64,000 nucleotides of DNA from Candidatus Bathyarchaeota archaeon (lineage in GTDB: Archaea; Thermoproteota; Bathyarchaeia; Bathyarchaeales; Bathycorpusculaceae). A program made the translations under genes and the position numbers. The DNA is taken from NCBI GenBank assembly GCA_026014665.1, contig JAOZHX010000022.1, positions 62,001-126,000 of the forward strand. Reading direction: 5' to 3'. The notes beneath the pieces are model-generated. The model was not told the DNA's origin. It was given only the letters and a program-made list of their open reading frames with translations, and did no database searches. Positions within the stretch are counted from its first letter, which is position 1. Every line of letters starts with the position of its first letter. Positions 49,886 through 64,000 of this stretch are shown in pieces.

Positions 49886-52345
49886 TTATGGACGTTTTCT
49901 TATCGCCAACAATAGAACAGCGCCGACAATTGCAATTGCTATGATTATAGCTGCGCCTAAGCCCAGTATGTACATGCCTGTTGGTTCTTGAGCTGGCGGG
50001 CTGACTGGGGTGGCTGTGGGTACTTGTTCTGAAACGATTGTGGTTGTTTCTGCGCTCGAGCTGAAGTAGGATTTGCTTCCTTTGAAGGATGCTATGATTT
50101 TATACTGTCCAGGCACATTTGGAGTTTGCCATGCAAAGCCATAGTGTCCGCTTGAGTCGCTTACTGTGTCTCCTAAGTGTACGTAATTGTTGTTGGGGTC
50201 GATGGCGTCTATTGATACTGGGACTCCGATGGCGTTGGTAGGTTTAGGTTGCTGCATGTAGAGGTATTCCATCCATTGTGTCATGTCTTTATCGGAAATT
50301 GCTGGTGTGCCTGGAGCGCCTGGAGATTGGTCTAGCACTGTTCCTTGAATAACCATTTGTGATCCTGCGGTGACTGGTGTTAACGGTGCTTCAACGGTTG
50401 TGGAGGTTTGGCCTTTGCCTATGCTGTATACTTGGGTGTCATAGTTGTTGAACGATGCAAGATAGCCGTCTGCGATTACGGGTGTCTGCCACCAACCTGT
50501 GAGGTTCCATATGCCTTCGCCTGTAGTTGCGTTAACGCAGAATATTCTGCCGCCACGCCACATGGGTGAGTTGGGACTGTGCTCACCTGTGCAAACGTAG
50601 ACTTTTCCATCAGCTATTGAGAATATTCCGCTTCCCAGAGGAAATGTTCCGTAGGGTGTTTCAAAGCCTGCATCGCCGGTGCTGAAATCCCAGAGGTGTT
50701 GGCCTGTTGCTGTACTGTAGGCATGGAGTTTTCCATCGTAGGCAACACTGTAGAGAATGCCATATGCTGAGAGGGGGTTTGAAGCGCCTAAGCCGTTAGT
50801 ACTGGAAGTGTACATACCGAAAGCGTTCGTGTAGGGTTCTGTTGGACCCCAGACTAATGCACCTGTCTTTATGTCGTATGCATAGAATTGCATTGTTTCC
50901 TGTTTAAAGAAGTAGAATTTTCCGTCGCTGTTGGGGACGATGAAGTATGTTGGTCGTACTGCTGCGTTGCTGGTAATGTTGATTAACCACATTTGGTGCC
51001 CGTCTGTTAAGTCATAGCCGCCAACAGTTATGGTTGTGTTGTCTGCTTGACCTGCCGCAACGAGAACTCCTTGACCGATTGTGCAGGCGCTAAGAGTGGC
51101 GGTAGCCGACATCAGCGAGACCTTCGGAATAGTTACGTTCCATTGGATGCCTTTAGTCCAGTCCTGTGTTGTTCCAAGCGGGGGTCTCCATTGCCAAGCG
51201 TTGGTTCCGGTTGTTCCAGGATAGAGGTAGGATGCATAGCTTGAGTTCCACATTGCAAACCAGCCATATCTTGTGTTAAGCATGTATACGAGAATGTCGC
51301 CTTGGTCGTCCATGGTTATTCTGCCTGTGGAGGCGTTAGCAAGAGTCAACAGCAAGTTTCCTGTGAAAGCGTCAAACATACGGTAGGTTGAACCAGTCTG
51401 CCACAGATATGCATAAGCTCCGTGCTGGTTTGGTGAATCGTACTCGAAAACTTGTCCAAGCGAGATTGTTATGTTCTGCCACCATTTTTGTTGACCAGTG
51501 CGTAGGTCTACTGCAACTGCGCCGCCGCCCGTGCCACTGTTACCGTTTGGTAGGTTGAAGAAGAGGGTTCCAGATATTATAACGGGTGGTGACCATCTGC
51601 CTTCATATGATAAGCCAGTGTAGTATGAAGCATCGATGCCTGAGAGGTTGCCTCCGACTATGCCACCGAACTGTATTGGTTTATTCCATACTATGTGAGC
51701 AGATTCTGGTGCTGTTGTAAAGGGGTTAAAGGCTCCGTATGAACTAGCGCCTGTACCGAATAGTAAAGTTACACCAAGCCAGTTTCCGCCTATCTGTGAC
51801 CATTCACGATTGGTGCCATAAATGGGGCGTGCCCAATATTCAGTCGGCAAAGGCGATGCTGGCCATCCGGGTATTTGTTCTTCTTGTACTACTAAGGTTA
51901 CTGGGGGACTGGTGGAACCTGTGTAGTGAGCTCCGTCAATTTGGTCTTCTCCTGGAAAGCTGAAGATGAACGTGTAGTTGCCTACTTCTGTTGGAGTATA
52001 TGCAAAGTAAGCCGAGGATACGGCGTCTGACGTGAAGGGCCCTTGTTTTTCTACTTGTCCGTTGGGTTTTGTGATGTTTACCATGAAATTATGCCAAGCT
52101 GTTTCAGTGCCGTTGGCATAGAGGGGCGGTAGTGTATCAAGCCACATGACGACGGTGGCTGTTTGGCCGACGCCGATTGGGCTTGGAGCGACGCTGAGAA
52201 AAGCGTAAGTTGGTCGGTCAAGAGCACTAGCAGTGGGTGTTGAAGCCAAAAGCAAAAAAGAAGTCAACATGAAGACTGCGGTAAGTATAGTTATAGCTTT
52301 TTTCAGAGGGGTATTCTTTAATGCAGATATACTGGTCGATTGCAT
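49886..52345 (-). CDS. secreted PQQ-like beta-propeller protein with Ig domain and anchor
   Basis: About 819 residues. Order: signal peptide (KKAITILTAVFMLTSFLLLA), an N-terminal Ig-like domain (ATVVMWLDTLPPLYANGTE), a PQQ/WD-like propeller (AVDLRTGQQKWWQNI, TGALVWGPTEPYTNAFG, ATGQHLWDFSTGDAGFE), a C-terminal Ig-like domain (GQYKIIASFKGSKSYF) and a membrane helix with LAIRKRP. The start at 52345 follows a GGAGAC site; a minus-strand TATA (AAATATATAAC, near 52431-52443) lies inside the longer open frame and excludes its start at 52480. A broken relative is at 2377-2659. Confidence 0.85.
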   Translation of the reverse strand: MQSTSISALKNTPLKKAITILTAVFMLTSFLLLASTPTASALDRPTYAFLSVAPSPIGVGQTATVVMWLDTLPPLYANGTETAWHNFMVNITKPNGQVEKQGPFTSDAVSSAYFAYTPTEVGNYTFIFSFPGEDQIDGAHYTGSTSPPVTLVVQEEQIPGWPASPLPTEYWARPIYGTNREWSQIGGNWLGVTLLFGTGASSYGAFNPFTTAPESAHIVWNKPIQFGGIVGGNLSGIDASYYTGLSYEGRWSPPVIISGTLFFNLPNGNSGTGGGAVAVDLRTGQQKWWQNITISLGQVFEYDSPNQHGAYAYLWQTGSTYRMFDAFTGNLLLTLANASTGRITMDDQGDILVYMLNTRYGWFAMWNSSYASYLYPGTTGTNAWQWRPPLGTTQDWTKGIQWNVTIPKVSLMSATATLSACTIGQGVLVAAGQADNTTITVGGYDLTDGHQMWLINITSNAAVRPTYFIVPNSDGKFYFFKQETMQFYAYDIKTGALVWGPTEPYTNAFGMYTSSTNGLGASNPLSAYGILYSVAYDGKLHAYSTATGQHLWDFSTGDAGFETPYGTFPLGSGIFSIADGKVYVCTGEHSPNSPMWRGGRIFCVNATTGEGIWNLTGWWQTPVIADGYLASFNNYDTQVYSIGKGQTSTTVEAPLTPVTAGSQMVIQGTVLDQSPGAPGTPAISDKDMTQWMEYLYMQQPKPTNAIGVPVSIDAIDPNNNYVHLGDTVSDSSGHYGFAWQTPNVPGQYKIIASFKGSKSYFSSSAETTTIVSEQVPTATPVSPPAQEPTGMYILGLGAAIIIAIAIVGAVLLLAIRKRP

Positions 52346-52626
52346 TTTGTATTCTGTCTCCATTTTATTTTTACAATTTTCTTGCAAGCAATCCTGAGAT
52401 TCCTTGCTAGTGAAAAGGTTATTAGCGGCGGTTATATATTTTTTACGCATTTTCTTATTTAGCTGAATATAGCAAATCAAGCATCAAGATTTTATATAAA
52501 TATAGTAAAAATAGTTCAATTTCTAATCTAAATATTCTTCAAATGTCCGAATGTACGCTTCAGCCATACTGTCATGCAATGATATTCTGAAATCTCGAGA
52601 GAGTTGCCGGTCTTTGGAAGAAAATG

Positions 52627-52633
52627 TTATATT
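52627..52633 (+). promoter_or_regulatory. TATA box for riboswitch 1 transcript
   Basis: TTATATT lies 27-33 bases before the first base of the aptamer stem. The flanking AAGAAAATGTTA…CTAAAA is shared with the region upstream of riboswitch 2, where TTAATAT (54567-54573) has the same spacing. Transcription would start right at the aptamer. Confidence 0.55.
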
Positions 52634-52654
52634 CTAAAATGCGATATTCCAAAA

Positions 52655-52723
52655 GAAAAGGGTGATGAGGCTCGCCCCTTTAATCGCCTCTGCATCATCT
52701 GCAAAGGCTGATAGCTTCTACAA
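52655..52723 (+). promoter_or_regulatory. fluoride riboswitch (crcB motif) 1
   Basis: The sequence matches the fluoride aptamer element by element. P1 is GGGTG (52660-52664) with CGCCC (52673-52677) around the loop ATGAGGCT. P3 is GCCT (686-689) with AGGC (705-708), extended by TGCA/TGCA. The 3' end CTGATAGCTTCTAC supplies AGCTTC (52713-52718), which pairs with GAGGCT (52667-52672) as the pseudoknot. AAGGGTG (52730-52736), a ribosome site, could pair with the 3' strand of P1 when fluoride is absent, giving translational ON control. It leads the P-type ATPase gene. Confidence 0.93.
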
Positions 52724-52741
52724 ACAATCAAGGGTGCAGTC

Positions 52742-52819
52742 TTGGATAAAACACATATATTTCTGGTCATGGATGCGACAAAGCGAAATTGTCTTCATTC
52801 TAGGAAGCGGTGCATTTGA
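52742..52819 (+). CDS. possible 25-codon leader ORF
   Basis: A TTG five bases after the AAGGGTG site controlled by riboswitch 1 opens a 25-codon frame (MDKTHIFLVMDATKRNCLHS…) ending in TGA inside the ATPase start region (10-base overlap with the GTG at 52810). Either it is a leader peptide coupled to the ATPase, or a frameshift separates the true ATPase start from its body. The sequence alone does not decide. Confidence 0.25.
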   Translation: MDKTHIFLVMDATKRNCLHSRKRCI

Positions 52820-54516
52820 AAGGTAGCTCTCTATCAATACTGAGAACAGGTAAAATTGTTAATATCAGGGAGGATGAATTGCAGAAAGAGGATATTCTGC
52901 TTTTGCAGGCAGGCGACCTCGTTGCTGCCGATGTTAAGCTCATCGGGGCACGTGGGTTAGAAGTCGACGAATTTGATTTGACCGGAGAAATAATGCCGGT
53001 AGAAAAAAAGGTAGACAAGGAAGAAGAGGTTTTTGTCTATAAAGGTAGCAGAATCATCAGAGGTAATGGCAAGGGTATTGTTGTTGCGATAGGGGAAGAA
53101 ACGGAATACGGAAAAATTCTCAAGCAACGCTGGGGGCAGGTCAAATACAATTTTCCGCCTTTAATCAAACGGAAATATTTTATTTTAATTGCTTTCCTTT
53201 TGCCACCTTTATTTGCCTTCGTAAGCTACAATGGCGATTTTGCCTTGATCAGCTTAACATTTCTTGGCATGGCAGTTTTCATCTTGCTATTACAAAATGA
53301 TGATTTGTTTAAGTATTTTTTACTTTCAAGTGAAATCAAAAAACTGGTTAGCAAGAAAATATTGTTTCACGATGAAACTTCCCTAGAAAATCTAAGCGAA
53401 ACCGACGTCGTTTGTTTTGATAAAACTGGGGTTCTAACAACTCGAGAGATCGAAGTTAAGCGCATTTTCTTTGCTGACCAAAGCCCTGATATGGAAGCCT
53501 TTGTTTCCAATGAGGGCATTTTTAGTTTAACCAAAACAGCGTCTGCATTATGCAACGACGTAATCTTCTTTGAAAGGATAAACCAAGCTGACCCCATAGA
53601 TAGAGCGCTAATATCGTTTGCTCTTAAGAACGGCGTGGATATGGATCAACTGGGCGAGAAATATAACCGGACGTATGAGAAGCCCTTCGATTCAGAAGAT
53701 AGGTATATGTCGGCAGGTTTCTCAATGGGTAAAGAGAAAATCTACTTTGTGAAGGGCGACCCCGAGATAATATTAAAAATGTGCAGGAGATACGCGGCGA
53801 TCTCTGGTGTAGAAAATAAGATTGACCTTAACTTTTTATCATCCATCAAAACTAAAAGTAATATTATTGATGCAAGTGGAGACAGAACGATAGCTTTAGC
53901 TTACAGTTTTAGCACTTTGGATATTCCACCGCCTGATTACACTTTTCTTTGCCTTGTCCAATTTGAAAATCCATTAAAACCTGAGGCCTCAGAAGTGGTA
54001 AAAACGCTTAAAGAAACTGGGATAAGGCCACTTGCTGTGACTGGGGATAGGCCTGAAACCGCTTTAAAAGTAGCCAGCGCAGTAGGAATAGCTGATGAAT
54101 CAAGTTATGTTTTGACTGGGAAAACCATGGAAAGGATGGATTTCTCGGAAATAGCAAAGCAATCTCAATACATTTCAGCTTATGCACGGTTGCTGCCTTC
54201 GCAGAAGGGGTTGCTTGTCAGGTTGTTAAAACAAAGAAACAAATTCGTCGTTATGGTCGGCGACGGAGCGAATGATACAGTAGCCCTCAAAGTGGCAGAT
54301 GCAGGAATATCTTTTCGCGCGAACAGTTCACCCTTTGCGGAGAGAGTATCAAAAATTTTAATCAATGATTTGAGTGACTTGGTAACTATTATTCTAAACG
54401 CCAGACGAGCAAAGGCGCGAATCAAATATTTGAGGTTTCTAAGAATCACAGTCTTAGCGGCTATATTCTTAGTCTCTTATTATTTGCTTCTAAACATAGT
54501 CTTAATTTCAATATAG
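52810..54516 (+). CDS. reduced P-type ATPase-like protein under a fluoride riboswitch
   Basis: A 568-residue P-type ATPase with all catalytic parts: TGE (58-60) in the actuator domain, phosphorylated D204 in DKTGVLT, KGDPE (315-319) in the nucleotide domain, TGDRPETA (411-418) and GDGANDTVAL (484-493). It starts within the actuator domain (GTG at 52810, in-frame stop just upstream), so helices M1-M2 are absent. Only two central helices (123-140, 145-162) and one or two at the C-terminus (545-566) remain. The M4 PEGL-type ion site is not seen. Ion transport by the usual path is therefore doubtful; the riboswitch implies a role under fluoride stress. Confidence 0.88.
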   Translation: MHLKGSSLSILRTGKIVNIREDELQKEDILLLQAGDLVAADVKLIGARGLEVDEFDLTGEIMPVEKKVDKEEEVFVYKGSRIIRGNGKGIVVAIGEETEYGKILKQRWGQVKYNFPPLIKRKYFILIAFLLPPLFAFVSYNGDFALISLTFLGMAVFILLLQNDDLFKYFLLSSEIKKLVSKKILFHDETSLENLSETDVVCFDKTGVLTTREIEVKRIFFADQSPDMEAFVSNEGIFSLTKTASALCNDVIFFERINQADPIDRALISFALKNGVDMDQLGEKYNRTYEKPFDSEDRYMSAGFSMGKEKIYFVKGDPEIILKMCRRYAAISGVENKIDLNFLSSIKTKSNIIDASGDRTIALAYSFSTLDIPPPDYTFLCLVQFENPLKPEASEVVKTLKETGIRPLAVTGDRPETALKVASAVGIADESSYVLTGKTMERMDFSEIAKQSQYISAYARLLPSQKGLLVRLLKQRNKFVVMVGDGANDTVALKVADAGISFRANSSPFAERVSKILINDLSDLVTIILNARRAKARIKYLRFLRITVLAAIFLVSYYLLLNIVLISI

Positions 54517-54595
54517 CTTCCGTTTGTTAATTTCTTCAATGACCTGACTATCTTTTTAAGAAAATGTTAATATCCTAAAACGTGGTATTCAAAAA

Positions 54596-54661
54596 GAAAA
54601 GGGCGATGAGGCTCGCCTTTAACCGTCTTTGCCTTAACGTGCAAGGACTAATAGCTTCTGG
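54596..54661 (+). promoter_or_regulatory. fluoride riboswitch (crcB motif) 2
   Basis: P1 is GGCG (54602-54605) with CGCC (54614-54617) around ATGAGGCT. P3 is an 8-base stem GTCTTTGC…GCAAGGAC (two G-T pairs). AGCTTC (54653-54658) pairs with GAGGCT (54608-54613). The ribosome site AAGGTG (54668-54673) is complementary to CGCCTT (54614-54619), the 3' strand of P1, so ligand-stabilised P1 would free the site. One variation is CTAAT where most aptamers have CTGAT. It leads the three-gene toroid/DUF6062 cassette. Confidence 0.92.
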
Positions 54662-54685
54662 CAGCTTAAGGTGAGTGTGGAAATA

Positions 54686-55528
54686 ATGCTTGAGGCAAGG
54701 CGGCTTAGTGACACGGTTTGGGTTAAGAAAGTCATCGATTATGTAGTTAATCGGCAGAACGATGACGGTGGATACACTTTCTGTCAAGGTACAGAGTCTA
54801 GCGCTCAAGATACCTATTATGGGCTTGCTATTCTGAACCTGTTAGATGTTAAATTTCCCAACGTTGAAAAGACAGTCAGATTCCTAAACGAACTTAACCT
54901 CGATACCGTGTATTCTGATTATTACATCGCCAAATCTCTTTTAATGTGTAACGAAAAGATTAATGCAAAATTGACGGCACAGATTACTTCTCGCCTTAGC
55001 TCTCAAGGCTATTATGGTTCTGTAAGCATTTTCTCTGAGGTTGCTTCAGAATTTATCACCACATTAATGTCGATAGAGTTGGCTGGCATAGTTAAGGTTA
55101 ATGTTCATAGCCAAGAAATTATAAATTGGCTATTGCAATTCAGAAATAACGATGGTTGCTTTGGGACGCACGGTCTATCAAACATTAATTCTACATACTA
55201 TGCCGTCGCTTCGCTGAGCCTACTGAAACATGACTTAAATGATATGCAAAAAACCGTGGGGTTTGTTAGGTCATGCGAGAAGCCCTATGGCGGCTTCACG
55301 GTTACGCCGATTAATACCATGCCCTATATGGAACACACGTTTTATGGTGTGATGACCCTTGATCTCTTAGGCCAGAAAGCTCTGTATCCTTCTCAAACAA
55401 TTGGTTATGTATTGAGTTGCCAGAACTTCAGGGGAGGCTTTGCACGTTCCGATATGGGGATTGCTTCGTTTGTCGACACTTACTATGCCGTAGAAATACT
55501 GCAAAAACTAATCAATAATAAGATGTGA
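54686..55528 (+). CDS. prenyltransferase/squalene-cyclase-like toroid protein
   Basis: A 280-residue all-helical protein with four to five repeats of the protein prenyltransferase beta type: NDDGGYTFCQGTESSAQDTY, NNDGCFGTHGLSNINSTYYA, KPYGGFTV…MEHTFYGVMTLDLL and FRGGFARSDMGIASFVDTYY. The fold is an alpha/alpha toroid. The zinc-binding Asp-x-Cys…His set of true prenyltransferases is not obvious, so the activity is unknown. The ATG at 54686 is chosen because the riboswitch-controlled AAGGTGA overlaps the GTG at 54671. First gene of a three-gene unit. Confidence 0.82.
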   Translation: MLEARRLSDTVWVKKVIDYVVNRQNDDGGYTFCQGTESSAQDTYYGLAILNLLDVKFPNVEKTVRFLNELNLDTVYSDYYIAKSLLMCNEKINAKLTAQITSRLSSQGYYGSVSIFSEVASEFITTLMSIELAGIVKVNVHSQEIINWLLQFRNNDGCFGTHGLSNINSTYYAVASLSLLKHDLNDMQKTVGFVRSCEKPYGGFTVTPINTMPYMEHTFYGVMTLDLLGQKALYPSQTIGYVLSCQNFRGGFARSDMGIASFVDTYYAVEILQKLINNKM

Positions 55529-55533
55529 TTTTG

Positions 55534-56232
55534 ATGGAGCCTACGATTACTTTTTATCGCTTAAAGAGGGCCATCGAAAAAAATACTGAATGCTTTATTT
55601 GTGATTTAGAGGCTGAAATTGAAAGCAGGTATATGGATGTTTACCTCTCAGAGCTCGTGATGGATTCCGCTGCTAGGCAAAGAATAATTGAAAGCAGAGG
55701 ATTCTGCAATCACCACTTCTATAAAATGTTGGCTGAGGCTTTCAAGCCTGCAACCTCTGATGGCCACGGAATGGCGTTGATTTTGCAAAGCGTTGCTGGA
55801 CAACTAATTCAGGATTTAACTAAACAAACAAATCAGCGTAATCACCGTTTTGATGAAATGTTAGTCGACGTGAAAAAATGTCCCGCTTGCATGCATATAG
55901 CTGGTTATGTCAATACCTATATTGAAGAAACCGCTTCTCGACTTGTTGGTGACGACGAGTTTTTAGCAACTTTCAGCAGTTCAAAAGGTATATGCATTCC
56001 TCATTTCATCAAACTGGTCGATGTTTTAGGAACAGTAGAAGATAAAAACCTTAAGTGCATCAACAAGATTGCGGAGATTGAGAAGTCAAATCTTCAGCGG
56101 TTAAAAGCAGACCTTGAAGAGTACATAAAAAGACAAAGCTACGAGTACTCTGAGGAAGACCGATCAGCCCTTGCAAAGACAGTTCCCTTGAGTATTGAGA
56201 AAATTGCCGGTCGGAAAGGGCTGTTGAAATAA
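55534..56232 (+). CDS. DUF6062-like cysteine-motif protein
   Basis: About 232 residues with two matching halves, each having a Cys pair and a Cys-His motif: ECFICDLE with RGFCNHHF, and CPACMH with KGICIPHF. The spacing suggests bound metal or a cluster in each half; the arrangement resembles DUF6062 proteins. The middle is helical (VAGQLIQDLTKQTNQRNHRF). A GTG at 55525 overlaps the upstream stop; the ATG at 55534 is taken. It is translated from the riboswitch 2 transcript. The biochemical role is not known. Confidence 0.78.
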   Translation: MEPTITFYRLKRAIEKNTECFICDLEAEIESRYMDVYLSELVMDSAARQRIIESRGFCNHHFYKMLAEAFKPATSDGHGMALILQSVAGQLIQDLTKQTNQRNHRFDEMLVDVKKCPACMHIAGYVNTYIEETASRLVGDDEFLATFSSSKGICIPHFIKLVDVLGTVEDKNLKCINKIAEIEKSNLQRLKADLEEYIKRQSYEYSEEDRSALAKTVPLSIEKIAGRKGLLK

Positions 56233-56559
56233 ATGTATGAGATATTCAAAATTATTTTGAAGCCCAAGAAAATTGACGTAGAGAAGAGCCTTGAGAAACT
56301 GCCATCGCTTAATTGGTATCCGGTTGACCATAAGATCGTAAAGGATGATGACGGCTTAAAATACGTCATAGACTTAGCTTCTTTTGAACTTAAATGCATG
56401 CTTGGCGAGTTATTCCCCATTGAAATCGGTGAGTGGTTGCCCAAGGATTACCCTTCTAGAGAAGAATTAGTTAATTCAGCAATTGGGGAGCTGAAAAAAC
56501 TACCCTTCAGTTTGGAAGTAGACAGGATCCAGAGAGTTGTTAAGCATGAATTGGCCTAA
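56233..56559 (+). CDS. unknown protein, third gene of the riboswitch 2 unit
   Basis: A 108-residue soluble protein whose ATG directly follows the TAA of the DUF6062 gene, so they are co-expressed. It has KPKKIDVEKSLEKLPSLNWYP, a strand-turn-strand (VKDDDGLKYVIDLASFELKC) and an acidic, helical second half ending in VVKHELA. No motif or family was recognised. Confidence 0.7.
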   Translation: MYEIFKIILKPKKIDVEKSLEKLPSLNWYPVDHKIVKDDDGLKYVIDLASFELKCMLGELFPIEIGEWLPKDYPSREELVNSAIGELKKLPFSLEVDRIQRVVKHELA

Positions 56560-56604
56560 GAGAAGTTGCTACAACTTTATTAGTACAGAACCCTTCAAAA
56601 GTAG

Positions 56605-56678
56605 CAAGGGCTATGGCATTAGCCGTGACTTCGATAGTCAAAACTGCACCGTTCAACGTCAGCTGACAATGCCTACCA
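56605..56678 (+). promoter_or_regulatory. variant fluoride riboswitch 3
   Basis: A diverged aptamer with the same topology. P1 is GGCT (56609-56612) with AGCC (56621-56624) around ATGGCATT. GGCATT (56615-56620) pairs perfectly with AATGCC (56668-56673), and the 3' end CTGACAATGCCTACC resembles the usual CTGATrrYCTAC. An extra small hairpin (GAC…GTC) sits between P1 and P3. A TATA-like TTTATTA (56576-56582) lies about 26 bases before P1. The loop and pseudoknot differ from copies 1 and 2 in a compensated way. It leads the MFS gene. Confidence 0.7.
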
Positions 56679-56696
56679 CATGAAAAGAAGCAGTGG

Positions 56697-57638
56697 ATGG
56701 GCAAACAGATGAGTGACAGAGTGAACAAGAAAGAGGTTGGGTGGCTCAATAGAAACGTTGCAGCGATGGGGTTAACCAGCCTGTTTGGCGATGCAGGTCA
56801 TGAGATGGTTACTGCTGTTCTTCCCTTCTTTCTCGCTGTTATAGGCGCTGGGCCAGAAGCATTAGGTTTTATCGAAGGCTTCTCTGATGGTGCTTCTAGT
56901 TTTGTGAAATCTTTCTCGGGATACCTGAGTGATAAGATAGGAAAGAGAAAACCGATAATCAACATTGGCTACTTTTTAACAAGCGTTTTCACACCTCTTA
57001 TAGCAGTAGCCACATCATGGTTTCAAGTTCTTGGCTTGCGAGTCACTGCTTGGCTTGGAAGAGGCGCCAGAGGACCACCGCGAGATGCCCTATTAGCGGA
57101 TTCTGTTTCTTCAAATGCAACTGGCAAGGCATTCGGTTTCCATAGGACAATGGACACTTTGGGCGCCATTATTGGACCTGCTTTAGCCCTGTTTTTCTTA
57201 ACGTTTCTAAGTTACAACCAAATCATCGCATTATCAGTAATACCTGGATTGATTGCGTTTTTTATCGTGTTTTTCGTTGTGCGCGAAGTCAGACAGAAAA
57301 AAGCGCCTGAAGCACCGATTGTATCTACTCATGGTGATGTTGTGGTAAAAGATAAAGGATTTATAAAGTCAATTCGGTCGCTTCCAAAACCGTTTAAGTT
57401 GTTTCTTGTCGGAGTGGGCGTTTTTGGCTTTGGTAACTTTGCCAACAGCCTATTCACTTTGAGGGCTCAACAGGTTTTAGCTCCAAGAGTTGGTGCTTTA
57501 GAGGCGTCGGTGATTGCAGTGGGGTTATACACTCTCCTTAACGTCGCATACGCCGCATCCTCATTCCCAATTGGCGCTCTTAGTGATAGGGGGGGAGACG
57601 GAGAATTCTTGCAGCAGGTTACTTCATTTCAGCTATAG
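56697..57638 (+). CDS. MFS transporter, N-terminal part (frameshifted gene)
   Basis: This encodes the first eight to nine helices of an MFS exporter: FGDAGHEMVTAVLPFFLAVI, GYLSDKIGKRKP (loop 2-3 motif), LGRGARGPPRDALLADSV and FHRTMDTLGAIIGP. The reading frame fails in ALSDRGG at a run of seven G (57589-57595); with one more G it would go on as RRRILAAGYFISAI and continue to 57958. The whole gene would encode about 420 residues. A sequencing slip, a real mutation or phase variation are all possible. An ATG at 56709 is an alternative start. Riboswitch 3 lies directly upstream; fluoride or another stress substrate is conceivable. Confidence 0.85.
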   Translation: MGKQMSDRVNKKEVGWLNRNVAAMGLTSLFGDAGHEMVTAVLPFFLAVIGAGPEALGFIEGFSDGASSFVKSFSGYLSDKIGKRKPIINIGYFLTSVFTPLIAVATSWFQVLGLRVTAWLGRGARGPPRDALLADSVSSNATGKAFGFHRTMDTLGAIIGPALALFFLTFLSYNQIIALSVIPGLIAFFIVFFVVREVRQKKAPEAPIVSTHGDVVVKDKGFIKSIRSLPKPFKLFLVGVGVFGFGNFANSLFTLRAQQVLAPRVGALEASVIAVGLYTLLNVAYAASSFPIGALSDRGGDGEFLQQVTSFQL

Positions 57639-57958
57639 CATGTCTAGGAACAGCTTTTCTCACACCTGATTTTATATTCTTAATTCCGCTCTTTCTCATC
57701 GCTGGCCTATTCTCAGCAATCACAGACACTCTGGAAGGAACAGCGGCAGCTGACCTGTTGCCGACAGAATCAAGAGGGACTGGTTTTGGAGTACTTCAAA
57801 CGGTTGAAGGCGTCGGCGACTTTGCCTCCAGCGCAGTGGTTGGAGTGCTTTGGGCACTCATATCTCCAATAGTCGCCTTCTCGTATGCTGCATTCTTGTC
57901 TGCATCCGGAGGCGTTATTCTGCTTTACTTGACTCGGGGGAATCATCCATTACGGTAA
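57590..57958 (+). pseudogene. MFS transporter, C-terminal part after the frameshift
   Basis: In the other frame this encodes the missing last helices (RRRILAAGYFISAIACLGTA, LIPLFLIAGLFSAITDTLEG) and the typical TAAADLLPTESRGTGFGVLQ region before helices 11-12. It joins the preceding reading frame at the G7 run. Without a shift it would not be translated as part of the transporter. Confidence 0.8.
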
Positions 57959-57992
57959 ATAGGAACAATAAGGACAGGAGAAATGGTGCAAA

Positions 57993-58538
57993 ATGAATTT
58001 TTGGAGACAGATTCCAGCAGGGGATAACCCTCCAGAACTGCTTAACATGGTTATTGAGGTAGTTGGTGGTTCTAGAGATAAATATCAGTATAATATTGAG
58101 AAGGAAGTGTTCGCTTTGGACAGGATTATTCCGTCTTCTGTCGTTTTCCCTGTCGAATACGGCTTTGTTCCACAGACTTTATCGGAGGACGGTGATCCAT
58201 TGGACATAATGGCGTTGAGTTATGAACCATTAGAAGTCGGAGTTATCGCCAGAGTCAGAGTAGTGGGCGCACTAATAATTGAAGATGAAGAGGGCGTTGA
58301 CCCCAAAATTCTCTCAGTGCTCGTTAATGACGCTAGGTTCGGAGGAATTAAAGATACAACTGATATTCAAAAAAATAAGTTGATTGAAATCCAAGAGTTT
58401 TTCGAAACCTACAAGCGGTTAGAGCCCCATAAATGGACTAAGTTTAAAGAATGGAAAACCGCTAAAAAAGCCATGTCAATTGTGGAAAAAGCAATGGCAA
58501 ACTATCAGGCTTTGAAGGAGAAATCGGAGGTGAACTAA
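57993..58538 (+). CDS. ppa: inorganic pyrophosphatase (family I)
   Basis: A 181-residue soluble pyrophosphatase that hydrolyses PPi to two phosphates. The family signature is EDGDPLDIM with D66, D68 and D71 binding metal. GGSRDKYQYN and FPVEYGFVPQTL are also clear. The enzyme is strongly inhibited by fluoride, and pyrophosphatase genes are known clients of fluoride riboswitches. It lies 34 bases after the MFS gene and four bases before the NUDIX gene, so it should belong to the riboswitch 3 transcript. Confidence 0.96.
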   Translation: MNFWRQIPAGDNPPELLNMVIEVVGGSRDKYQYNIEKEVFALDRIIPSSVVFPVEYGFVPQTLSEDGDPLDIMALSYEPLEVGVIARVRVVGALIIEDEEGVDPKILSVLVNDARFGGIKDTTDIQKNKLIEIQEFFETYKRLEPHKWTKFKEWKTAKKAMSIVEKAMANYQALKEKSEVN

Positions 58539-58542
58539 CCCT

Positions 58543-59007
58543 ATGATATCTCAACGAGACATACCAAAAGGCAAGATATTGGTAAGTGCCTATGCTATAA
58601 TTGAAGGCAAAGACGATGGGATTCTGTTCATCTACGAAGGGGATGAACCCTATCATAAAATGCTGGTTTTGCCTGGCGGATACGTTAAGGCAAATGAAAC
58701 GCTTGACCAAACAGTAACACGCGAAGTTGAAGAAGAAACAGGATTAAAGGTTGATTCAACAGAATTCGTCGGAATATTCCAAGATTTCTTAACCCAAGAG
58801 GACGAGCCCATCAACCACATTATCGCAGCCTACAAAGTTGAAGTTGTTGGAGGCAGACTAATCTTCTCCAGGGAGGCAACGGCGTATAAGTGGTTAACCG
58901 TGGAAGAAACAAAAAGTTCGACAGAAGTGCCTGATGTATTCAAACGAATTTTAGATGCCGTCGGGAAAGAGCATAAAAAGCGTTTTCCAATTTGGAAGAC
59001 TTCTTAG
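58543..59007 (+). CDS. NUDIX hydrolase
   Basis: A 154-residue protein with a full Nudix box, GGYVKANETLDQTVTREV then EEETGL (residues 45-68), which binds Mg and cleaves nucleoside diphosphate derivatives. GIFQDFLTQEDEPINHI may shape the substrate pocket. Nudix cleavage can release PPi, so pairing with pyrophosphatase is logical. It is four bases after ppa. The substrate is not evident. Confidence 0.92.
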   Translation: MISQRDIPKGKILVSAYAIIEGKDDGILFIYEGDEPYHKMLVLPGGYVKANETLDQTVTREVEEETGLKVDSTEFVGIFQDFLTQEDEPINHIIAAYKVEVVGGRLIFSREATAYKWLTVEETKSSTEVPDVFKRILDAVGKEHKKRFPIWKTS

Positions 59008-59032
59008 TGCTGGGTTATTTTGAGGACTAGCC

Positions 59033-60871
59033 ATGAGTGCCGGTGTTTCCTCTTTAGACTACTCACATCAAAGGGCCGAGATAGAAAAGACAGGGCACGC
59101 TATTCTAAAAGTTGCAGAGCAAACAAACAACACGGCTATTGCCAGTTTCATAAGCGACGTTTTAGACAACCTTTCCAGAGAGGAATACTACGTAGCAATC
59201 TTTGGACTTTCCAACCGAGGTAAATCAACACTAATAAACGCCATTCTTGGGCAATCAATCATCCCAACAGGCGTTAACCCTGCAAAGTCTGTGATAACGA
59301 GAATCAGATATGGCACCAACTTGAACGCAAAAATAAGGTTCAGCGACGGGAAAGAAAAAGCAGTTCCTGTTAAAGCACTTTACGATTTTATCACAGAGGA
59401 AAAAAATCCAAATAATAAGAAAAGCTTAGCAGTCGCCGACATCTTCATGCCGACACCAATTCTGAAGGACGGCATAATATTAATCGATACACCTGAAGTA
59501 GACTCAACACATCTCGATGTGACAACGACGACCTTTCGATTTCTCGACAGAGCAGATGTTGTCTTGTTTGTACTTGCCGGTCACCTTCAAGTAGGGCAGC
59601 AGGAACTGGAATTGATTGGCAATTTGGCGTCTAAATCAAACAAAATACTTTTTGTCTTGAACACGGTCGATGATGTCGAGCCAGCAGCTGTTAATGAGTC
59701 TGTCATGTATTGCCAGAGGGTCATTAGCAAGCAACTTGGATATGGCAATGGCTCTTCGCTGGTGATTTATCCTGTATCTGCAGAACTAGCGTTAGATGGG
59801 CAACTGCATAATAGTCCTGCTCAGGTTGAAAGCAGCGGCATAAAACAGTTAGAAGCGGCCATAAAAGAAACTCTCTTAGCCCAAAAAGAGAACGCAGTAT
59901 TAAAATCTGTTTGGAAAAAACTGGAGGGAGCAGCGGCTGACCTGAAAACGCATGTGGAAGTTGAGCTTAACGCTTTAACAATGCCCTCGGATAACCTTAC
60001 GCATCTTTTGCTTGAATTTGAACAGTACCTCATTGAGGTTAACCAGAAAAAGCTGGAGATCTTTTATGCTCTTGAAGGTTGCGTAAAAGAGATTGTAAGT
60101 ATGCTGGATGAAGATTTAACTGCTTTTGAGAATGAGCATGAAAGTGCGCTTGTAAAACAGATTCAAGATTTCGCAGAGCATAGGCTGATGCCAGAAAAGA
60201 CTATTTCAAGAACGGTTGTAAATGAAGTGGATACGTTTTATAAGACAAGATTGAGGGAGGTTTATTCAGAATTTATTAGAAATGAAGACATTCGTGTTGA
60301 AAGTCGATTTAGGCAGCTTGTTGAACAAGCCAATGGCAAAACAAACACTTTGATTGGAGCGATCAAGCGGAAAGCAAAGCAGCTTTTTGGTTCTCAGACG
60401 ACAGATAGCATTTTTAGTGTTTCGTTAGATTTCGAAACACGATTCTATTATCCTCTTGACTCAATCTTTTTTGACCCCTTTACGTATGGTATCGATGCGA
60501 ATACTCAACTTCTTTCGAAATCATGGCTTAATGGCAATTCTAAAGTGAACTTGGCTGACCAGGTAAGAGCTGAATTTTTCAAGAACCGGGAAAAGGCATG
60601 CTTTAATTATTTTGTTTCGCGAATTAATCGGGCGGTTTTGATGTTGAGAAATGATATTTGCAGAGCATTAAAGTCTTCAACTGAGACTGTAAAGAAAGCT
60701 GTTTATAAAGCACAGGAATTGCGGACCAAAAACGAGACTGAGGTGTTCTCAGCGATTATTATTCTTAACAGGTTGCTAGGCCATCTGCAATTGGCTCAGG
60801 TTCAAGCGATTAGAAAACAGGTGGGGCGAGACTATGAACTTTTCCGAGAAAAACCGCCAACCGGCCTGTAA
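59033..60871 (+). CDS. dynamin-like GTPase
   Basis: A 612-residue GTPase of the dynamin superfamily. G1 is GLSNRGKST (58-66), G3 is DTPE (152-155, with Glu in place of Gly) and G4 is NTVDD (210-214). A long helical stalk follows (residues 290-600), including a less polar stretch near FSVSLDFETRFYYPLDSIFF. Bacterial relatives remodel or repair membranes. It is encoded in the fluoride-linked cassette, with the coiled-coil gene directly after it, which is an unusual setting. Confidence 0.88.
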   Translation: MSAGVSSLDYSHQRAEIEKTGHAILKVAEQTNNTAIASFISDVLDNLSREEYYVAIFGLSNRGKSTLINAILGQSIIPTGVNPAKSVITRIRYGTNLNAKIRFSDGKEKAVPVKALYDFITEEKNPNNKKSLAVADIFMPTPILKDGIILIDTPEVDSTHLDVTTTTFRFLDRADVVLFVLAGHLQVGQQELELIGNLASKSNKILFVLNTVDDVEPAAVNESVMYCQRVISKQLGYGNGSSLVIYPVSAELALDGQLHNSPAQVESSGIKQLEAAIKETLLAQKENAVLKSVWKKLEGAAADLKTHVEVELNALTMPSDNLTHLLLEFEQYLIEVNQKKLEIFYALEGCVKEIVSMLDEDLTAFENEHESALVKQIQDFAEHRLMPEKTISRTVVNEVDTFYKTRLREVYSEFIRNEDIRVESRFRQLVEQANGKTNTLIGAIKRKAKQLFGSQTTDSIFSVSLDFETRFYYPLDSIFFDPFTYGIDANTQLLSKSWLNGNSKVNLADQVRAEFFKNREKACFNYFVSRINRAVLMLRNDICRALKSSTETVKKAVYKAQELRTKNETEVFSAIIILNRLLGHLQLAQVQAIRKQVGRDYELFREKPPTGL

Positions 60872-60884
60872 CAGGGGCGATCAA

Positions 60885-61316
60885 ATGACAAAGTTACGCG
60901 AAAGCCACGAGCGGGCATTGCGAAGCAGCTTATACATTATAGAGGAGAATCTGCAACGAATAAGAAATCTTCTTACGGAGGGCAACTCAACCAACCAAAC
61001 AATCACTTACCGCATAGTGGACAACTTGGATGCTGAATCAAAACCAAAGATCGTTAATTTTATAGCTGATATGCTTGATGAAATCAGGCAGATTAAAGAA
61101 ACATTCGAGTTAGAGACTGAAAGAATCAATTTGAGAGCTGAAATCTTGGCTGCTCTTGATGAGGTGTGGATTATACTGGTTGATTTGGGGCCTGAAAGGT
61201 TGAAAGCCTATGGAGAGCTTTTGGCATCTGAAAAAGCTTTGATTGAGCCTCATACAATGTCACTGCAAGATAGATTGGAAATGCTGCGAAGGCTACTTAG
61301 AGAACAAAAAACTTGA
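60885..61316 (+). CDS. coiled-coil protein following the dynamin-like gene
   Basis: A 143-residue, mostly helical protein (ESHERALRSSLYIIEENLQR, FIADMLDEIRQIKETFELET, SLQDRLEMLRRLLREQKT). The ATG at 60885 has an AGGGGCG ribosome site 5-10 bases upstream and lies just past the GTPase stop; an ATG at 60834 that overlaps the GTPase is unlikely to be used. It is probably a partner of the GTPase. No family is recognised. Confidence 0.75.
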   Translation: MTKLRESHERALRSSLYIIEENLQRIRNLLTEGNSTNQTITYRIVDNLDAESKPKIVNFIADMLDEIRQIKETFELETERINLRAEILAALDEVWIILVDLGPERLKAYGELLASEKALIEPHTMSLQDRLEMLRRLLREQKT

Positions 61317-61403
61317 ATTAATGGTAATTATTTCTTCAGGGAACACCTATTGCCTGATGTCTCCTAACCTGTTCTTATCAGCTGTTTCTTCACTTGCTGT
61401 TCT

Positions 61404-62699
61404 CTACGTTGCCGGAATGAGACAGCCGCATTGCCTAAAGTTTATGCCCGCATACTTTGCGTTTATTTCAAGGTCTTCCTCTATTCGTAAAAGTTGATTG
61501 TATTTCGATGTACGTTCTCCACGTGCAGGCGCTCCCGTCTTAATTTGACCTGTGCCCATTGCAACGACGAAATCAGCGATTGTTGTGTCTTCTGTTTCTC
61601 CTGAGCGATGGGAAACAACCGCTGTCCAACCGTGGCTGCCTGCGAGGTTTATCGCGTCCACGGTTTCGGTTATAGTGCCTATTTGGTTTAGCTTTATTAG
61701 AACCGAATTTGCAGACTGCCGCTCTATGCCTTGCTTTATGCGCTTAACATTGGTTACGAAAATGTCGTCGCCGACAACTTGGATTTTGGAACCAATCTTT
61801 TTGGTTAATGCTGAGAAGCTGTCAAAGTCTTCCTCTTGGAACGGATCTTCGACTGAAATAATCGGATACGTCTCTGTTAATTGTGCCCAGAAATCAACGA
61901 GTTGCTGAGCTGTCAAGTCTTTCCCATCTATATGATAGGTTTTCTTGTCTGCATCGTAGAACGATGAAGCCGCAGGGTCTATGGCAAGGAATATTTCTTT
62001 TGAGTACCCAGCGTTTTCGATTGCTTTGGTCAGACAATCTAACGCTTCAGAAGTGTAAGTCATGTTTGGCGCATATCCGCCTTCGTCACCAACGTTCTTA
62101 GCGCTTACACCGTAGCGTTCCTTGACGATGTTCCCCAATTCATGATAAGTCTCAGATGCCATCCGAAGGGCTTCCCTAAAGTTGGAAGCACCGATTGGCA
62201 TTATCATAAACTCCTGAGGAGAAAGCTTAGTGCCAGCATGCTTTCCACCGTTAAGAACGTTGAGCATCGGAACTGGCAAAAGAGCAGCGTTTGGGTTGAG
62301 ACTTAGGTAAAGTGGCAGGTTCTTGCATGAAGCCGCGCATTTTGCGACTGCCATGGATGTTGCTACGGTAGCGTTGGCGCCCAAGTTTGCTTTGTTGCTG
62401 GTTCCATCGAGTTCAATGAGAGTCTGGTCTATTTCTTTCTGCAGCGTGCAGTCCAAACCGGCAAGCGCCTTAGCAATTTTCACATTAACGTTGTCGATGG
62501 CTTTAAGCACACCTCTGCCGCCATATCGTCGCGGGTCGCCGTCCCGAAGTTCCAATGCTTCATGAACGCCGGTGCTCGCGCCTGAAGGTGCGATGGCACG
62601 TCCCATGTTGTTACCTGCGTAAACTTCCACTTCTATTGTTGGGTTTCCTCGAGAATCAAGTACTTCCCGCGCTTTGACAGCTGTTATTCTGTTAACCAT
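61404..62699 (-). CDS. eno: enolase
   Basis: A 431-residue enolase converting 2-phosphoglycerate to phosphoenolpyruvate. The metal ligands are D241 (AIDPAASS), E284 (SVEDPFQ) and D311 (VVGDDIFVTN). Catalytic E206 (VGDEGGYAPN) and K336 (LIKLNQIGT) are present, as are SHRSGETEDTTIADF and GAPARGERTSKYN. Fluoride with phosphate is a classical inhibitor, and enolase is a known fluoride-riboswitch client. It lies 26 bases after the MutS-like gene, likely in one transcript; any riboswitch for it would be upstream of 64000, outside the window. Confidence 0.98.
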   Translation of the reverse strand: MVNRITAVKAREVLDSRGNPTIEVEVYAGNNMGRAIAPSGASTGVHEALELRDGDPRRYGGRGVLKAIDNVNVKIAKALAGLDCTLQKEIDQTLIELDGTSNKANLGANATVATSMAVAKCAASCKNLPLYLSLNPNAALLPVPMLNVLNGGKHAGTKLSPQEFMIMPIGASNFREALRMASETYHELGNIVKERYGVSAKNVGDEGGYAPNMTYTSEALDCLTKAIENAGYSKEIFLAIDPAASSFYDADKKTYHIDGKDLTAQQLVDFWAQLTETYPIISVEDPFQEEDFDSFSALTKKIGSKIQVVGDDIFVTNVKRIKQGIERQSANSVLIKLNQIGTITETVDAINLAGSHGWTAVVSHRSGETEDTTIADFVVAMGTGQIKTGAPARGERTSKYNQLLRIEEDLEINAKYAGINFRQCGCLIPAT

Positions 62700-62725
62700 T
62701 TCTTCACTACCCTGTTCAGTGTTAC

Positions 62726-64000
62726 CTATTCTGCAATATTAGTTTTCGCACTTTTAAAAAACAGGCTACTTTCCGACGTTTTGGGCTCAACGAATATTTG
62801 TTTATACAAATCTTCGCCATAACTGGTTGGAAGAGGTTCGCCTTCCACCATTTTAAAGGTCCTTCGTCCATCCTCCAGTCGTTCTGCTCTAAGAAACAGG
62901 GCAAAATCCAAATTACGCTGATAGAATCCCGCAGCTAAGTCAAACATGTGGGTAACGAACAAGACCTTTATGTCCGAATCTAACATTGCACAGACGATTT
63001 GCCGGGCAATCTCTGAACCTTCCCTTTCATTAGTGGATGCGAACGACTCGTTACAAAGCAGGACGCATTTTGGTTTTATCTCATCGGCAATTTTGCTCAT
63101 CCTGCTTAATTCTTCATCAAGCTTACCGCTCTTCATGGTAACATCCTCTTCACGTTTGAAATGAGTAAAAATGCCCAATGAGACGTTAGCTGAGAAACGT
63201 TCGGCAGCTACAAACATGCCGCACTGCATCATCAGATAGGCTAAGCCTACACTTCTAAGAAATGTTGATTTGCCGCCTTGGTTGGCTCCCGTTACAAAAA
63301 TGAGTTCTTTGTCATCCGCAGAAAGATCATTTGCAATGATTCTGCTTTCTAATCTGAGAGATAGGCAAATGTCGTATAGTTCCTTGGCTGAAAGTGCGGT
63401 CTTATCCACTGCCAAAGCGTCAGGGATACATGTTGGCTCACCCTTGCTTACAAGTTGTTCATGCAAGTTAAGGCAAGCAATGTAAAAGCCTAATTCATTA
63501 CGCAGCATCGTAAAGAAGTTGAGAATGTGATCAGCCGATTGCGCCAGCGCGTTAGCTACTGCGTTTATGCCTCGTTCCCTTAGCTCTGAAATCGCCCGTA
63601 TGCCGCCTTCATCTCGGTCAGCAATTTCAAAGTACAGCGGCTTTTCTCTGCTTAAGAGACGTTGCCGCCAGTTTTTCTTTTGCTCGAAGGGCTTACGAAG
63701 AGTGTAGTTGCTTCCCTTGTTGCCCTTCCCCAGTTGAGCGCTTATGAGGGTTCCGTTTGGAAACCTCAGTTGAGTCAGGTGGTCTTGGATGGTGTTTAGG
63801 TATTCGTCATCTAATTCTTCAATGATCATTTTGAAAAAGCGAACAAAGCCCTCTGAATGGAATTCGGTAGCATGCAAATCTGCAACTTGCCTTAGCTTTT
63901 TTAGAAACGGGAAAAATACTTCAAGCACTGAAATGGAGCTAGAAAGTATTGAATCAGGTGACCTAAGCATGAAGCGCCAAACGGATTTTTCAGCTTGTAT
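62726..64000 (-). CDS. MutS-like ATPase (partial, 5' end beyond window)
   Basis: At least 424 residues of a MutS family protein. The ATPase domain V is complete: Walker A TGANQGGKSTFLRS, Walker B KCVLLCNESFAST, and the H-loop VTHMFDLAAGF. Upstream is a helical lever/clamp-like part (LRERGINAVANALAQSADHI). The frame is open to the window edge, so the start is missing. MutS-like proteins without the mismatch-reading domain are known near fluoride riboswitches. Mismatch repair is not assured; it is paired with enolase. Confidence 0.88.
   Translation of the reverse strand: MQAEKSVWRFMLRSPDSILSSSISVLEVFFPFLKKLRQVADLHATEFHSEGFVRFFKMIIEELDDEYLNTIQDHLTQLRFPNGTLISAQLGKGNKGSNYTLRKPFEQKKNWRQRLLSREKPLYFEIADRDEGGIRAISELRERGINAVANALAQSADHILNFFTMLRNELGFYIACLNLHEQLVSKGEPTCIPDALAVDKTALSAKELYDICLSLRLESRIIANDLSADDKELIFVTGANQGGKSTFLRSVGLAYLMMQCGMFVAAERFSANVSLGIFTHFKREEDVTMKSGKLDEELSRMSKIADEIKPKCVLLCNESFASTNEREGSEIARQIVCAMLDSDIKVLFVTHMFDLAAGFYQRNLDFALFLRAERLEDGRRTFKMVEGEPLPTSYGEDLYKQIFVEPKTSESSLFFKSAKTNIAE

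What the first reader, a model, noticed from the sequence alone, without database searches (positions are those of the whole stretch)
52655..64000. An archaeal fluoride-stress regulon with three riboswitches and several unstudied genes
Three fluoride-type aptamers head consecutive units within 4 kb (52655, 54596, 56605). Their genes include pyrophosphatase; enolase and a MutS-like gene lie opposite. These three families are known fluoride-riboswitch clients. The rest are new candidates: reduced P-type ATPase, prenyltransferase-toroid, DUF6062, a 108-residue unknown, an MFS protein, NUDIX, dynamin-like GTPase and a coiled-coil partner. No CrcB/Fluc or CLC-F gene is in the window, so detoxification may rely on something else.
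Basis: partly seen in the sequence, partly recalled or inferred. Interest (0 to 1): 0.88.

Follow-up and report, generated by a model that had tools for sequence, protein, structure and literature searches.

The report
Archaeal fluoride-switch island with toroid protein
A bathyarchaeal genome carries a cluster of fluoride-sensing RNA switches in front of stress genes, and one switched gene, a prenyltransferase-fold protein of unknown function, turns out to sit behind a fluoride switch in distantly related archaea, including many in which no known fluoride exporter was found.

Summary
The three aptamers are real. Two pass Rfam's Fluoride cut-off. The third (27.4 bits) falls below it, but a model trained without it finds it at E 8.7e-16. 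The cluster runs past the window: five aptamers within 14 kb, plus a sixth on another contig heading CrcB/Fluc. Enolase and a MutS-like pair follow their own aptamer just beyond the window.

The real finding is the second unit's first gene, a soluble alpha-alpha toroid protein (PF00432 fold), often followed by zinc-motif DUF6062. In the Thermococcus order, 88 of 88 genomes with a fluoride aptamer carry one within 300 nt upstream of this gene. In 398 genomes of the window's phylum, 29 of 29 strong homologues have one, against 1 of 18 weaker matches. No CrcB was found in 22 of those 29; 20 also lack any CLC match. A 2014 paper found it surprising that the T. kodakarensis fluoride RNA precedes TK0513, not crcB; this family very probably explains it.

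I read the toroid protein as the core of a conserved archaeal fluoride response, possibly exporter-independent. Its chemistry is unknown; isoprenoid or diphosphate handling is my guess.

The parts
52652..52727 (+). fluoride aptamer 1 (subclass A), heads the reduced P-type ATPase
   Evidence: RF01734 41.0 bits; pseudoknot paired
52810..54516 (+). reduced P-type ATPase, 568 aa: A, P and N domain matches kept; frame starts at the A domain (no M1-M2), no PEG motif
   Evidence: Pfam PF00122, PF00702, PF13246; DKTG, TGE and GDGxND present, PEG absent; 57% orthologue just upstream of the aptamer-toroid unit in G010
54593..54667 (+). fluoride aptamer 2 (subclass A), heads toroid-DUF6062-108 aa
   Evidence: RF01734 35.7 bits; pseudoknot paired
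54671..55528 (+). toroid protein, PF00432 fold, no membrane segment; the recurrent archaeal fluoride-riboswitch client (start at 54671 GTG or 54686 ATG)
   Evidence: Pfam 87 bits; model pLDDT 90.3, RabGGTase beta chains the best fold matches; aptamer linkage
55525..56232 (+). DUF6062 protein with two CxxC...CxxH motif pairs
   Evidence: Pfam PF19538 117.4 bits; motifs in 14 of 14 aligned
56233..56559 (+). 108-aa protein of unknown family
   Evidence: no Pfam match, no NCBIfam match; one relative at 55% in the G067 toroid operon
56600..56682 (+). fluoride aptamer 3 (subclass B with an extra 4-bp hairpin), heads the MFS-to-160-aa unit
   Evidence: RF01734 27.4 bits, below cut-off; hold-out model 57.3 bits, E 8.7e-16
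56697..57955 (+). MFS transporter gene lying in two frames, broken at a G run 57589-57595
   Evidence: relatives' MFS aligns to 56697-57629 in one frame and to 57593-57955 in another
57993..58538 (+). inorganic pyrophosphatase
   Evidence: PF00719 161 bits
58543..59007 (+). NUDIX hydrolase
   Evidence: PF00293
59033..60871 (+). dynamin-like GTPase
   Evidence: PF00350; 54% relative in the G010 toroid unit
60834..61316 (+). 160-aa partner of unknown family
   Evidence: no Pfam match; relatives behind aptamers in G067 (59%) and G389 (36%)
61404..62699 (-). enolase (label from my reading of the sequence), last gene of the minus-strand unit whose aptamer lies beyond the window (window-scale 65999-66071)
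   Evidence: ORF; aptamer 23.9 bits with Rfam, 50.7 bits with R1, which was trained on it
62726..64000 (-). second MutS-like gene (runs on past the window; the first lies just beyond)
   Evidence: PF00488 for this one; full frames in L007; the first was not run against Pfam

Best explanation
This is part of a fluoride-response island in a bathyarchaeon. Five RF01734-class aptamers stand in front of adjacent units, and a sixth stands in front of crcB elsewhere.

Shown: the aptamers are conserved structured RNAs. The toroid gene, often with DUF6062 right behind it, is kept behind such aptamers in both the Thermococcus order and the window's phylum, including genomes in which no Fluc or CLC gene was found.

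Inferred: when fluoride rises, Mg-fluoride folds the aptamer and turns the unit on. The mostly short distance from aptamer to start codon suggests control of translation.

Inferred: the toroid protein with its partner (DUF6062 or a lineage-specific one) is a cytosolic protection module that works without, or beside, export. My lean, at about 0.25, is that its pocket handles an isoprenoid or isoprenyl-diphosphate substrate, either keeping isoprenoid synthesis going while fluoride blocks pyrophosphatase or altering the membrane against HF. The confidence given below is for the regulon and client claims, not for this last step.
For: Aptamers.

Linkage found from the protein side: 46 of 64 toroid loci have an aptamer upstream on the same strand (27-111 nt in 45, 484 in one; models R1/R2 at E <= 0.05). 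Rfam confirms 17 of 17 of these loci given to it.

Order of a Thermococcus genome, 94 genomes: toroid in 90, aptamer in 88, linked in 88, median gap 47 nt. Window's phylum, 398 genomes: 29 of 29 strong toroid matches linked, 1 of 18 weaker.

No exporter found: 22 of 29 without CrcB, 20 of these also without CLC.

Soluble toroid fold. Co-clients pyrophosphatase, enolase and MutS fit known fluoride clients (PMC2864571 and PMC11139923, passages). A T. kodakarensis RNA-seq paper places the crcB RNA before TK0513 and gives crcB its own start site (PMC4247193, passages).
Against: No fluoride binding, expression or resistance was measured. The 290-bit toroid cut-off was chosen after seeing the gap, and the profile was built mostly from aptamer-linked members. 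Absence of CrcB/CLC rests on draft genomes and two profiles. The toroid is not the universal client: in the 398-genome sample only 30 of 103 aptamers lie before a toroid gene or piece, and among the 59 matches in close relatives CrcB comes first more often (26) than the toroid (20). Some toroid genes have no aptamer: Archaeoglobales L100 and L101, nested inside the bathyarchaeal clade, and G168 and G237 in the Thermococcus order. The isoprenoid step rests only on the fold and the neighbours.
Confidence: 0.75

Rival explanations
1. The toroid protein is an accessory or regulator of the Fluc exporter, sharing its operon because it helps assemble or gate CrcB.
For: Toroid, DUF6062, CrcB and DUF190 lie in one gene run in seven Thermococci loci (L121, L134, L135, L137, L138, L140, L141) and, in part, in L048 and L055.
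Against: 22 of 29 genomes of the window's phylum with the strong aptamer-linked toroid show no CrcB match. In T. kodakarensis crcB has its own start site (PMC4247193 passage).
Confidence: 0.12
2. The toroid protein replaces a fluoride-sensitive housekeeping step: a fluoride-resistant stand-in made only under stress, much as extra enolase and pyrophosphatase would be.
For: It shares the island with pyrophosphatase and enolase here. In a Methanobacteriaceae contig (L127) an aptamer is followed by a Na+/H+ exchanger, a toroid piece, enolase and pyrophosphatase, all on one strand.
Against: I know of no central-metabolism enzyme of this fold for it to replace (recalled). The two active-site signatures of known enzymes of the fold that I tested are not kept.
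Confidence: 0.25
3. Fluoride is not the ligand in these archaea; the aptamers sense another signal and the clients have nothing to do with fluoride.
For: No ligand was tested in this lineage.
Against: Four of the six own-genome aptamers match RF01734 over its cut-off, and clients include CrcB, pyrophosphatase and MutS-like genes. PMC8241225 calls the T. kodakarensis riboswitch, citing Speed et al. 2018, fluoride-responsive and experimentally determined (passage; the original is not held).
Confidence: 0.04
4. The toroid-aptamer link is inherited hitch-hiking with no functional meaning.
For: Linkage could be passed down within an order.
Against: It holds in two archaeal phyla, with aptamers that fit two different subclass models and with different following genes.
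Confidence: 0.03

Closest known systems
Fluoride (crcB) riboswitch regulons, RF01734
   Same: same aptamer fold and pseudoknot; clients here and in relatives include CrcB, pyrophosphatase, enolase, MutS-like genes, a Na+/H+ exchanger and a hydrogenase-type operon
   Different: five aptamers in 14 kb; six in the genome, more than any of the 150 relatives (at most 3), though one genome of the wider sample, G508, also has six; a toroid protein is a leading client, the dominant one in the Thermococcus order, often with no exporter found
Thermococcus kodakarensis crcB RNA upstream of TK0513-TK0514 (PMC4247193)
   Same: aptamer directly before a non-crcB gene that is followed by crcB, as with the toroid in L119, L123, L124 and L130
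   Different: there noted as a surprise in one species; here it is the rule in 88 of 88 genomes of a Thermococcus order that have the aptamer. That TK0513 is the toroid gene is very probable but was not checked on the named genome
Protein prenyltransferase beta subunits (RabGGTase, FTase) and squalene-hopene cyclases
   Same: alpha-alpha toroid fold, TM 0.76-0.77 to RabGGTase beta
   Different: no invariant Cys or His for the zinc site, no DxDD motif; NCBIfam cyclase models match the window protein only weakly, far below their cut-offs; 62 of 64 loci found are archaeal by record title

Membership tests
Fluoride riboswitch RF01734 | score over Rfam's gathering cut-off | tested here: met
   two of three window aptamers; the third below the cut-off but E 8.7e-16 with a hold-out model
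Fluoride riboswitch RF01734 | P1 plus loop-to-3'-strand pseudoknot | tested here: met
   100% paired in 36 of 36 aligned aptamers; covariation score above 500 of 500 shuffles
Fluoride riboswitch RF01734 | binds fluoride and controls the gene behind it | not testable with these tools
   needs in-line probing and reporters
Protein prenyltransferase beta subunit | alpha-alpha toroid fold | tested here: met
   model pLDDT 90.3, TM 0.76-0.77 to RabGGTase beta
Protein prenyltransferase beta subunit | zinc ligands Asp, Cys, His (recalled) | tested here: not met
   no invariant Cys or His column in 49 sequences: best Cys 39 of 49, best His 22 of 49; invariant residues are E216, R254, S255 and others
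Class II terpene / squalene cyclase | DxDD acid motif (recalled) | tested here: not met
   0 of 49 sequences hold DxDD
CrcB/Fluc exporter | PF02537 protein in the genome | tested here: met
   one match in the whole genome, G000:C2:45311-45637, 85.8 bits, behind its own aptamer; so none in the window
DUF6062 (PF19538) | profile match over cut-off | tested here: met
   117.4 bits against 27
P-type ATPase pump | catalytic motifs TGE, DKTG, GDGxND | tested here: met
P-type ATPase pump | M1-M2 and the M4 proline motif for ion binding (recalled) | tested here: not met
   the frame starts at the A domain; PEG absent; 3 hydrophobic segments against 10 in the full-length neighbour

The most novel reading that the evidence does not exclude
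The toroid protein with DUF6062 (or a lineage-specific partner) is a widespread archaeal fluoride-protection system that needs no exporter: a soluble, prenyltransferase-fold module that is the only fluoride-switched unit detected in many archaea in which neither Fluc nor CLC was found.
Probability: 0.4. Interest if true: 0.92.

Novelty: new variant of a known kind. Interest (0 to 1): 0.82.

Why it matters
Known microbial fluoride defence centres on two exporters plus extra copies of inhibited enzymes. If a soluble toroid protein is a leading archaeal client, and stands alone in genomes without an exporter, then a mode of fluoride protection has been overlooked. It would probably also explain a puzzle printed in 2014: why the T. 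kodakarensis fluoride RNA precedes TK0513 and not crcB. Because T. kodakarensis has genetics, the question can be tested directly.

Tried and rejected
Rejected: 'no CrcB, so another way' for this genome. Rejected: the toroid protein as a protein prenyltransferase or squalene-type cyclase. Rejected: the toroid protein as an exporter itself; no segment of the window protein passes 1.6 on a 19-residue hydropathy scale.

Led nowhere: DUF6062 fold search, no match at E <= 0.001; sequence search of DUF6062 and of the 220-aa partner family against solved structures, only weak hits (best E 0.21 and 0.0019); Pfam for the 220-aa, 152-aa, 99-aa and 140-aa partners, no families. Paper searches for DUF6062, for fluoride + Bathyarchaeota + riboswitch, and for fluoride + archaea + alpha-alpha toroid returned none. 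TK0513 is in one paper only. The literature claim therefore covers held open-access papers only; the ids I tried for Baker 2012 (recalled) and Speed 2018 are not held.

Rows dropped: L104 was left out of the toroid alignment A6 because its match region holds stop codons; 14 others of the 64 loci were also not put in: L123, L127, L130, L141, and pieces, split or distant ones (L103, L143, L145-L147, L149-L151, L153-L155 in whole or part). A6 thus holds the window and 48 of 64 loci. A3 holds 36 of the 65 aptamer matches then known.
Full report
OBSERVATION. cmscan of the 64-kb window finds RF01734 at 52652-52727 (41.0 bits) and 54593-54667 (35.7 bits), both over the 34-bit cut-off. With relaxed thresholds on 52000-64000 it finds a third at 56600-56682, 27.4 bits. 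In the whole genome (2.37 Mb, 94% complete) there are six matches: the three in the window, two just beyond it on the same contig (C13:127999-128071 minus, 23.9 bits; C13:128522-128591 plus, 38.7 bits) and one on another contig (C2:45683-45760 minus, 36.4 bits); four of the six are over the cut-off. None of 150 relatives has more than three. One genome of a wider sample, G508, also has six, so the number is high but not unique.

THE APTAMERS ARE REAL. I aligned 36 of the 65 matches then known, 6 from this genome and 30 from relatives. P1 and the pseudoknot are fully paired in all 36; sliding the partner by 1 to 3 columns drops pairing to 59% or less. The covariation score and the paired cells exceed all 500 shuffles, but the number of pairs with double changes (7 of 10) does not. 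Two subclasses are visible. Subclass A stands before toroid genes in the bathyarchaea. Subclass B was aligned from 26 aptamers, 24 before crcB and 2 before MFS genes; it carries an extra 4-bp hairpin, three of whose four pairs have compensatory changes, 94% of cells paired. The third window aptamer is subclass B. A model from 24 relatives, with window and own genome left out, finds it at 57.3 bits, E 8.7e-16, against a next best of 12.1 bits in the window.

THE UNITS. (1) Aptamer 52652: reduced P-type ATPase. (2) Aptamer 54593: toroid, DUF6062, 108-aa protein. (3) Aptamer 56600: MFS (split by a frameshift at a G run; relatives' MFS aligns to 56697-57629 and 57593-57955 in two frames), pyrophosphatase, NUDIX, dynamin-like GTPase, 160-aa partner. 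(4) The minus-strand aptamer beyond the window: two MutS-like genes, then enolase. (5) The plus-strand aptamer beyond the window: a full-length P-type ATPase, 779 aa, which I read as a proton-pump type. (6) On C2: CrcB (PF02537) and a DUF190-like gene. Pfam was run on ten window proteins. Enolase, the first MutS-like gene, the 779-aa ATPase and DUF190 were not run against a library in this genome; their labels are my reading of the sequences. The host's nearest named relatives, by the toroid protein, are Candidatus Bathyarchaeota.

CLIENTS IN RELATIVES. RF01734 matched in 47 of 150 relatives (43 over cut-off). I fetched DNA for all 59 matches outside this genome and read the gene behind each (labels by BLAST to this genome's proteins). 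The first gene is CrcB in 26 and the toroid in 20 (one of them broken, L044); in one more the toroid is second, behind a NUDIX gene. One has MFS, one a Na+/H+ exchanger (PF00999), and 10 have no assigned gene. In the window's family DUF6062 follows the toroid in 8 of 12 loci. In two other families of the order a 220-aa family without a Pfam match takes that slot in six loci, once as a fragment.

FROM THE PROTEIN SIDE. The toroid alignment found 64 loci in named genomes. My aptamer models (E <= 0.05) find an aptamer upstream of the toroid match in 46 of 64, or 43 of 58 with more than 250 nt of upstream DNA held. Rfam itself confirms 17 of 17 loci with a model hit that I gave it, from Thermococci, Brockarchaeota and a Crenarchaeota record. 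Of 15 further loci it finds one in 2 (L127, L148) and none in 13, among them Archaeoglobales, Thermofilales, Methanothrix and Deltaproteobacteria. Seven Thermococci loci read aptamer, toroid, DUF6062, two small genes, CrcB, DUF190; PF19538 was confirmed in one of them, L135.

CENSUS. The order of the genome that holds L116 (a Thermococcus record, so Thermococcales), 94 genomes: toroid in 90, aptamer in 88, 86 of them over the cut-off, and in all 88 an aptamer lies 37-253 nt (median 47) upstream of the toroid. 15 of 103 aptamers lie elsewhere; toroid genomes without the link are G168 and G237. A few copies are broken (G225, G233; one stop in G226). Two of the 15 other aptamers were read: both head a six-gene operon of the same gene sizes, which in L178 holds complex I / group 4 hydrogenase-type families. 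The window's phylum (Thermoproteota in GTDB, recalled), 398 genomes: aptamer in 80, 72 over the cut-off, toroid profile match in 44. 29 of 29 matches over 290 bits have an aptamer within 506 nt; of 18 lower matches one does, a piece of a broken copy; 73 of the 103 aptamers in this sample lie before other genes. The cut-off was set after seeing the gap, and the profile is mostly from linked members, so the sharpness is partly built in. The link in the Thermococcus order does not depend on that cut-off.

EXPORTERS. Of those 29 genomes, 7 have a CrcB match and 22 have none (the same search rings in 10 of 14 controls, including three archaea). A CLC match is in 2 of the 22 (rings in 12 of 14 controls), leaving 20 with neither. 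By the columns, 14 of the 20 are at least 90% complete, and in 18 of the 20 the toroid aptamer is the only RF01734 match (whose stricter filters lose some weak matches). This is the strongest hint of exporter-independent protection. It is an absence in draft genomes.

THE TOROID PROTEIN. AlphaFold gives pLDDT 90.3. The best solved folds are RabGGTase beta chains, TM 0.76-0.77, 16-18% identity. In 49 aligned members E216, T43, R254, S255 and several glycines are invariant. No Cys or His column is invariant (best 39 and 22 of 49), so the prenyltransferase zinc site (recalled) is not kept, and no member has DxDD. The window protein has no hydrophobic membrane-like segment. So it has the fold but fails the membership tests of its known enzyme families. 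The tree puts aptamer-less Archaeoglobales inside the bathyarchaeal clade, and the aptamer label needs 5 changes; the program warns of long branches.

DUF6062. Two CxxC...CxxH motif pairs are kept in 14 of 14, the window protein and 13 from Thermococci, which suggests two metal sites. The model is all-helical, pLDDT 85.7, with no solved fold at E <= 0.001. In G389, in which no toroid match was listed, it is the first gene behind the aptamer. Weak DUF6062 matches also lie beside aptamer-less toroid homologues (G372, G413, G433).

MECHANISM. Aptamer-to-start distances are mostly short, which fits control of translation; this is inferred. The toroid fold's known enzymes bind isoprenoids (recalled), archaeal lipids are isoprenoid (recalled), and co-clients include pyrophosphatase and NUDIX hydrolases. 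From this I lean to isoprenoid or isoprenyl-diphosphate handling, at about 0.25. An equally serious rival is a fluoride-resistant stand-in for some housekeeping step.

LITERATURE. Weinberg 2010 (PMC2864571, passages) lists mutS, K+ or Cl- transport and formate hydrogen lyase genes. The 2024 review (PMC11139923, passages) lists exporters, Na+/H+ antiporters, pyrophosphatase, haloacid dehalogenases, enolase, formate hydrogen lyase and chorismate mutase. The passages I saw do not name a toroid or prenyltransferase protein. The T. [quoted passage not shown] I could not check TK0513 on the named genome. Speed et al. 2018 is known to me here only through PMC8241225 (passage).

Noticed in passing
window 57589-57595: A run of seven G in the MFS gene coincides with a frameshift; real or an assembly error, not decided.
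   Followed up: partly
L007:16522-18946 (beyond the window): A full-length P-type ATPase (proton-pump type by my reading) has its own fluoride aptamer, which would fit acid stress from HF.
   Followed up: partly
L178, L179 (Thermococcus order); L173-L175, L183 (window's phylum): Aptamers head a multi-gene operon (L178 by Pfam: complex I / group 4 hydrogenase-type proteins); the others resemble it by gene sizes only.
   Followed up: partly
A5: 26 aptamers, 24 of them before crcB: Aptamer subclass with an extra covarying 4-bp hairpin between P1 and P3; Rfam's model scores 4 of the 26 below its cut-off.
   Followed up: partly
L007:15999-16071 minus, and L056:3144-3215: The MutS-unit aptamer has a CCCAAC loop complementary to a downstream GGTTGGG; the downstream motif also occurs behind the G021 aptamer. 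Possible expression platform.
   Followed up: no
window 49886-52480 minus: BLAST relatives of the 864-aa protein beside the island lie in 8 of 55 loci examined, this one included; the background rate was not measured.
   Followed up: no
L122, L126 and G372, G413, G433: More distant toroid homologues without aptamers sit, in L122, beside a relative of the 220-aa partner and, in the three G genomes, beside weak DUF6062 matches, so the pairing may be older than the switch.
   Followed up: partly
L100, L101: Archaeoglobales toroid genes nest in the bathyarchaeal clade but have no aptamer: transfer and loss?
   Followed up: no
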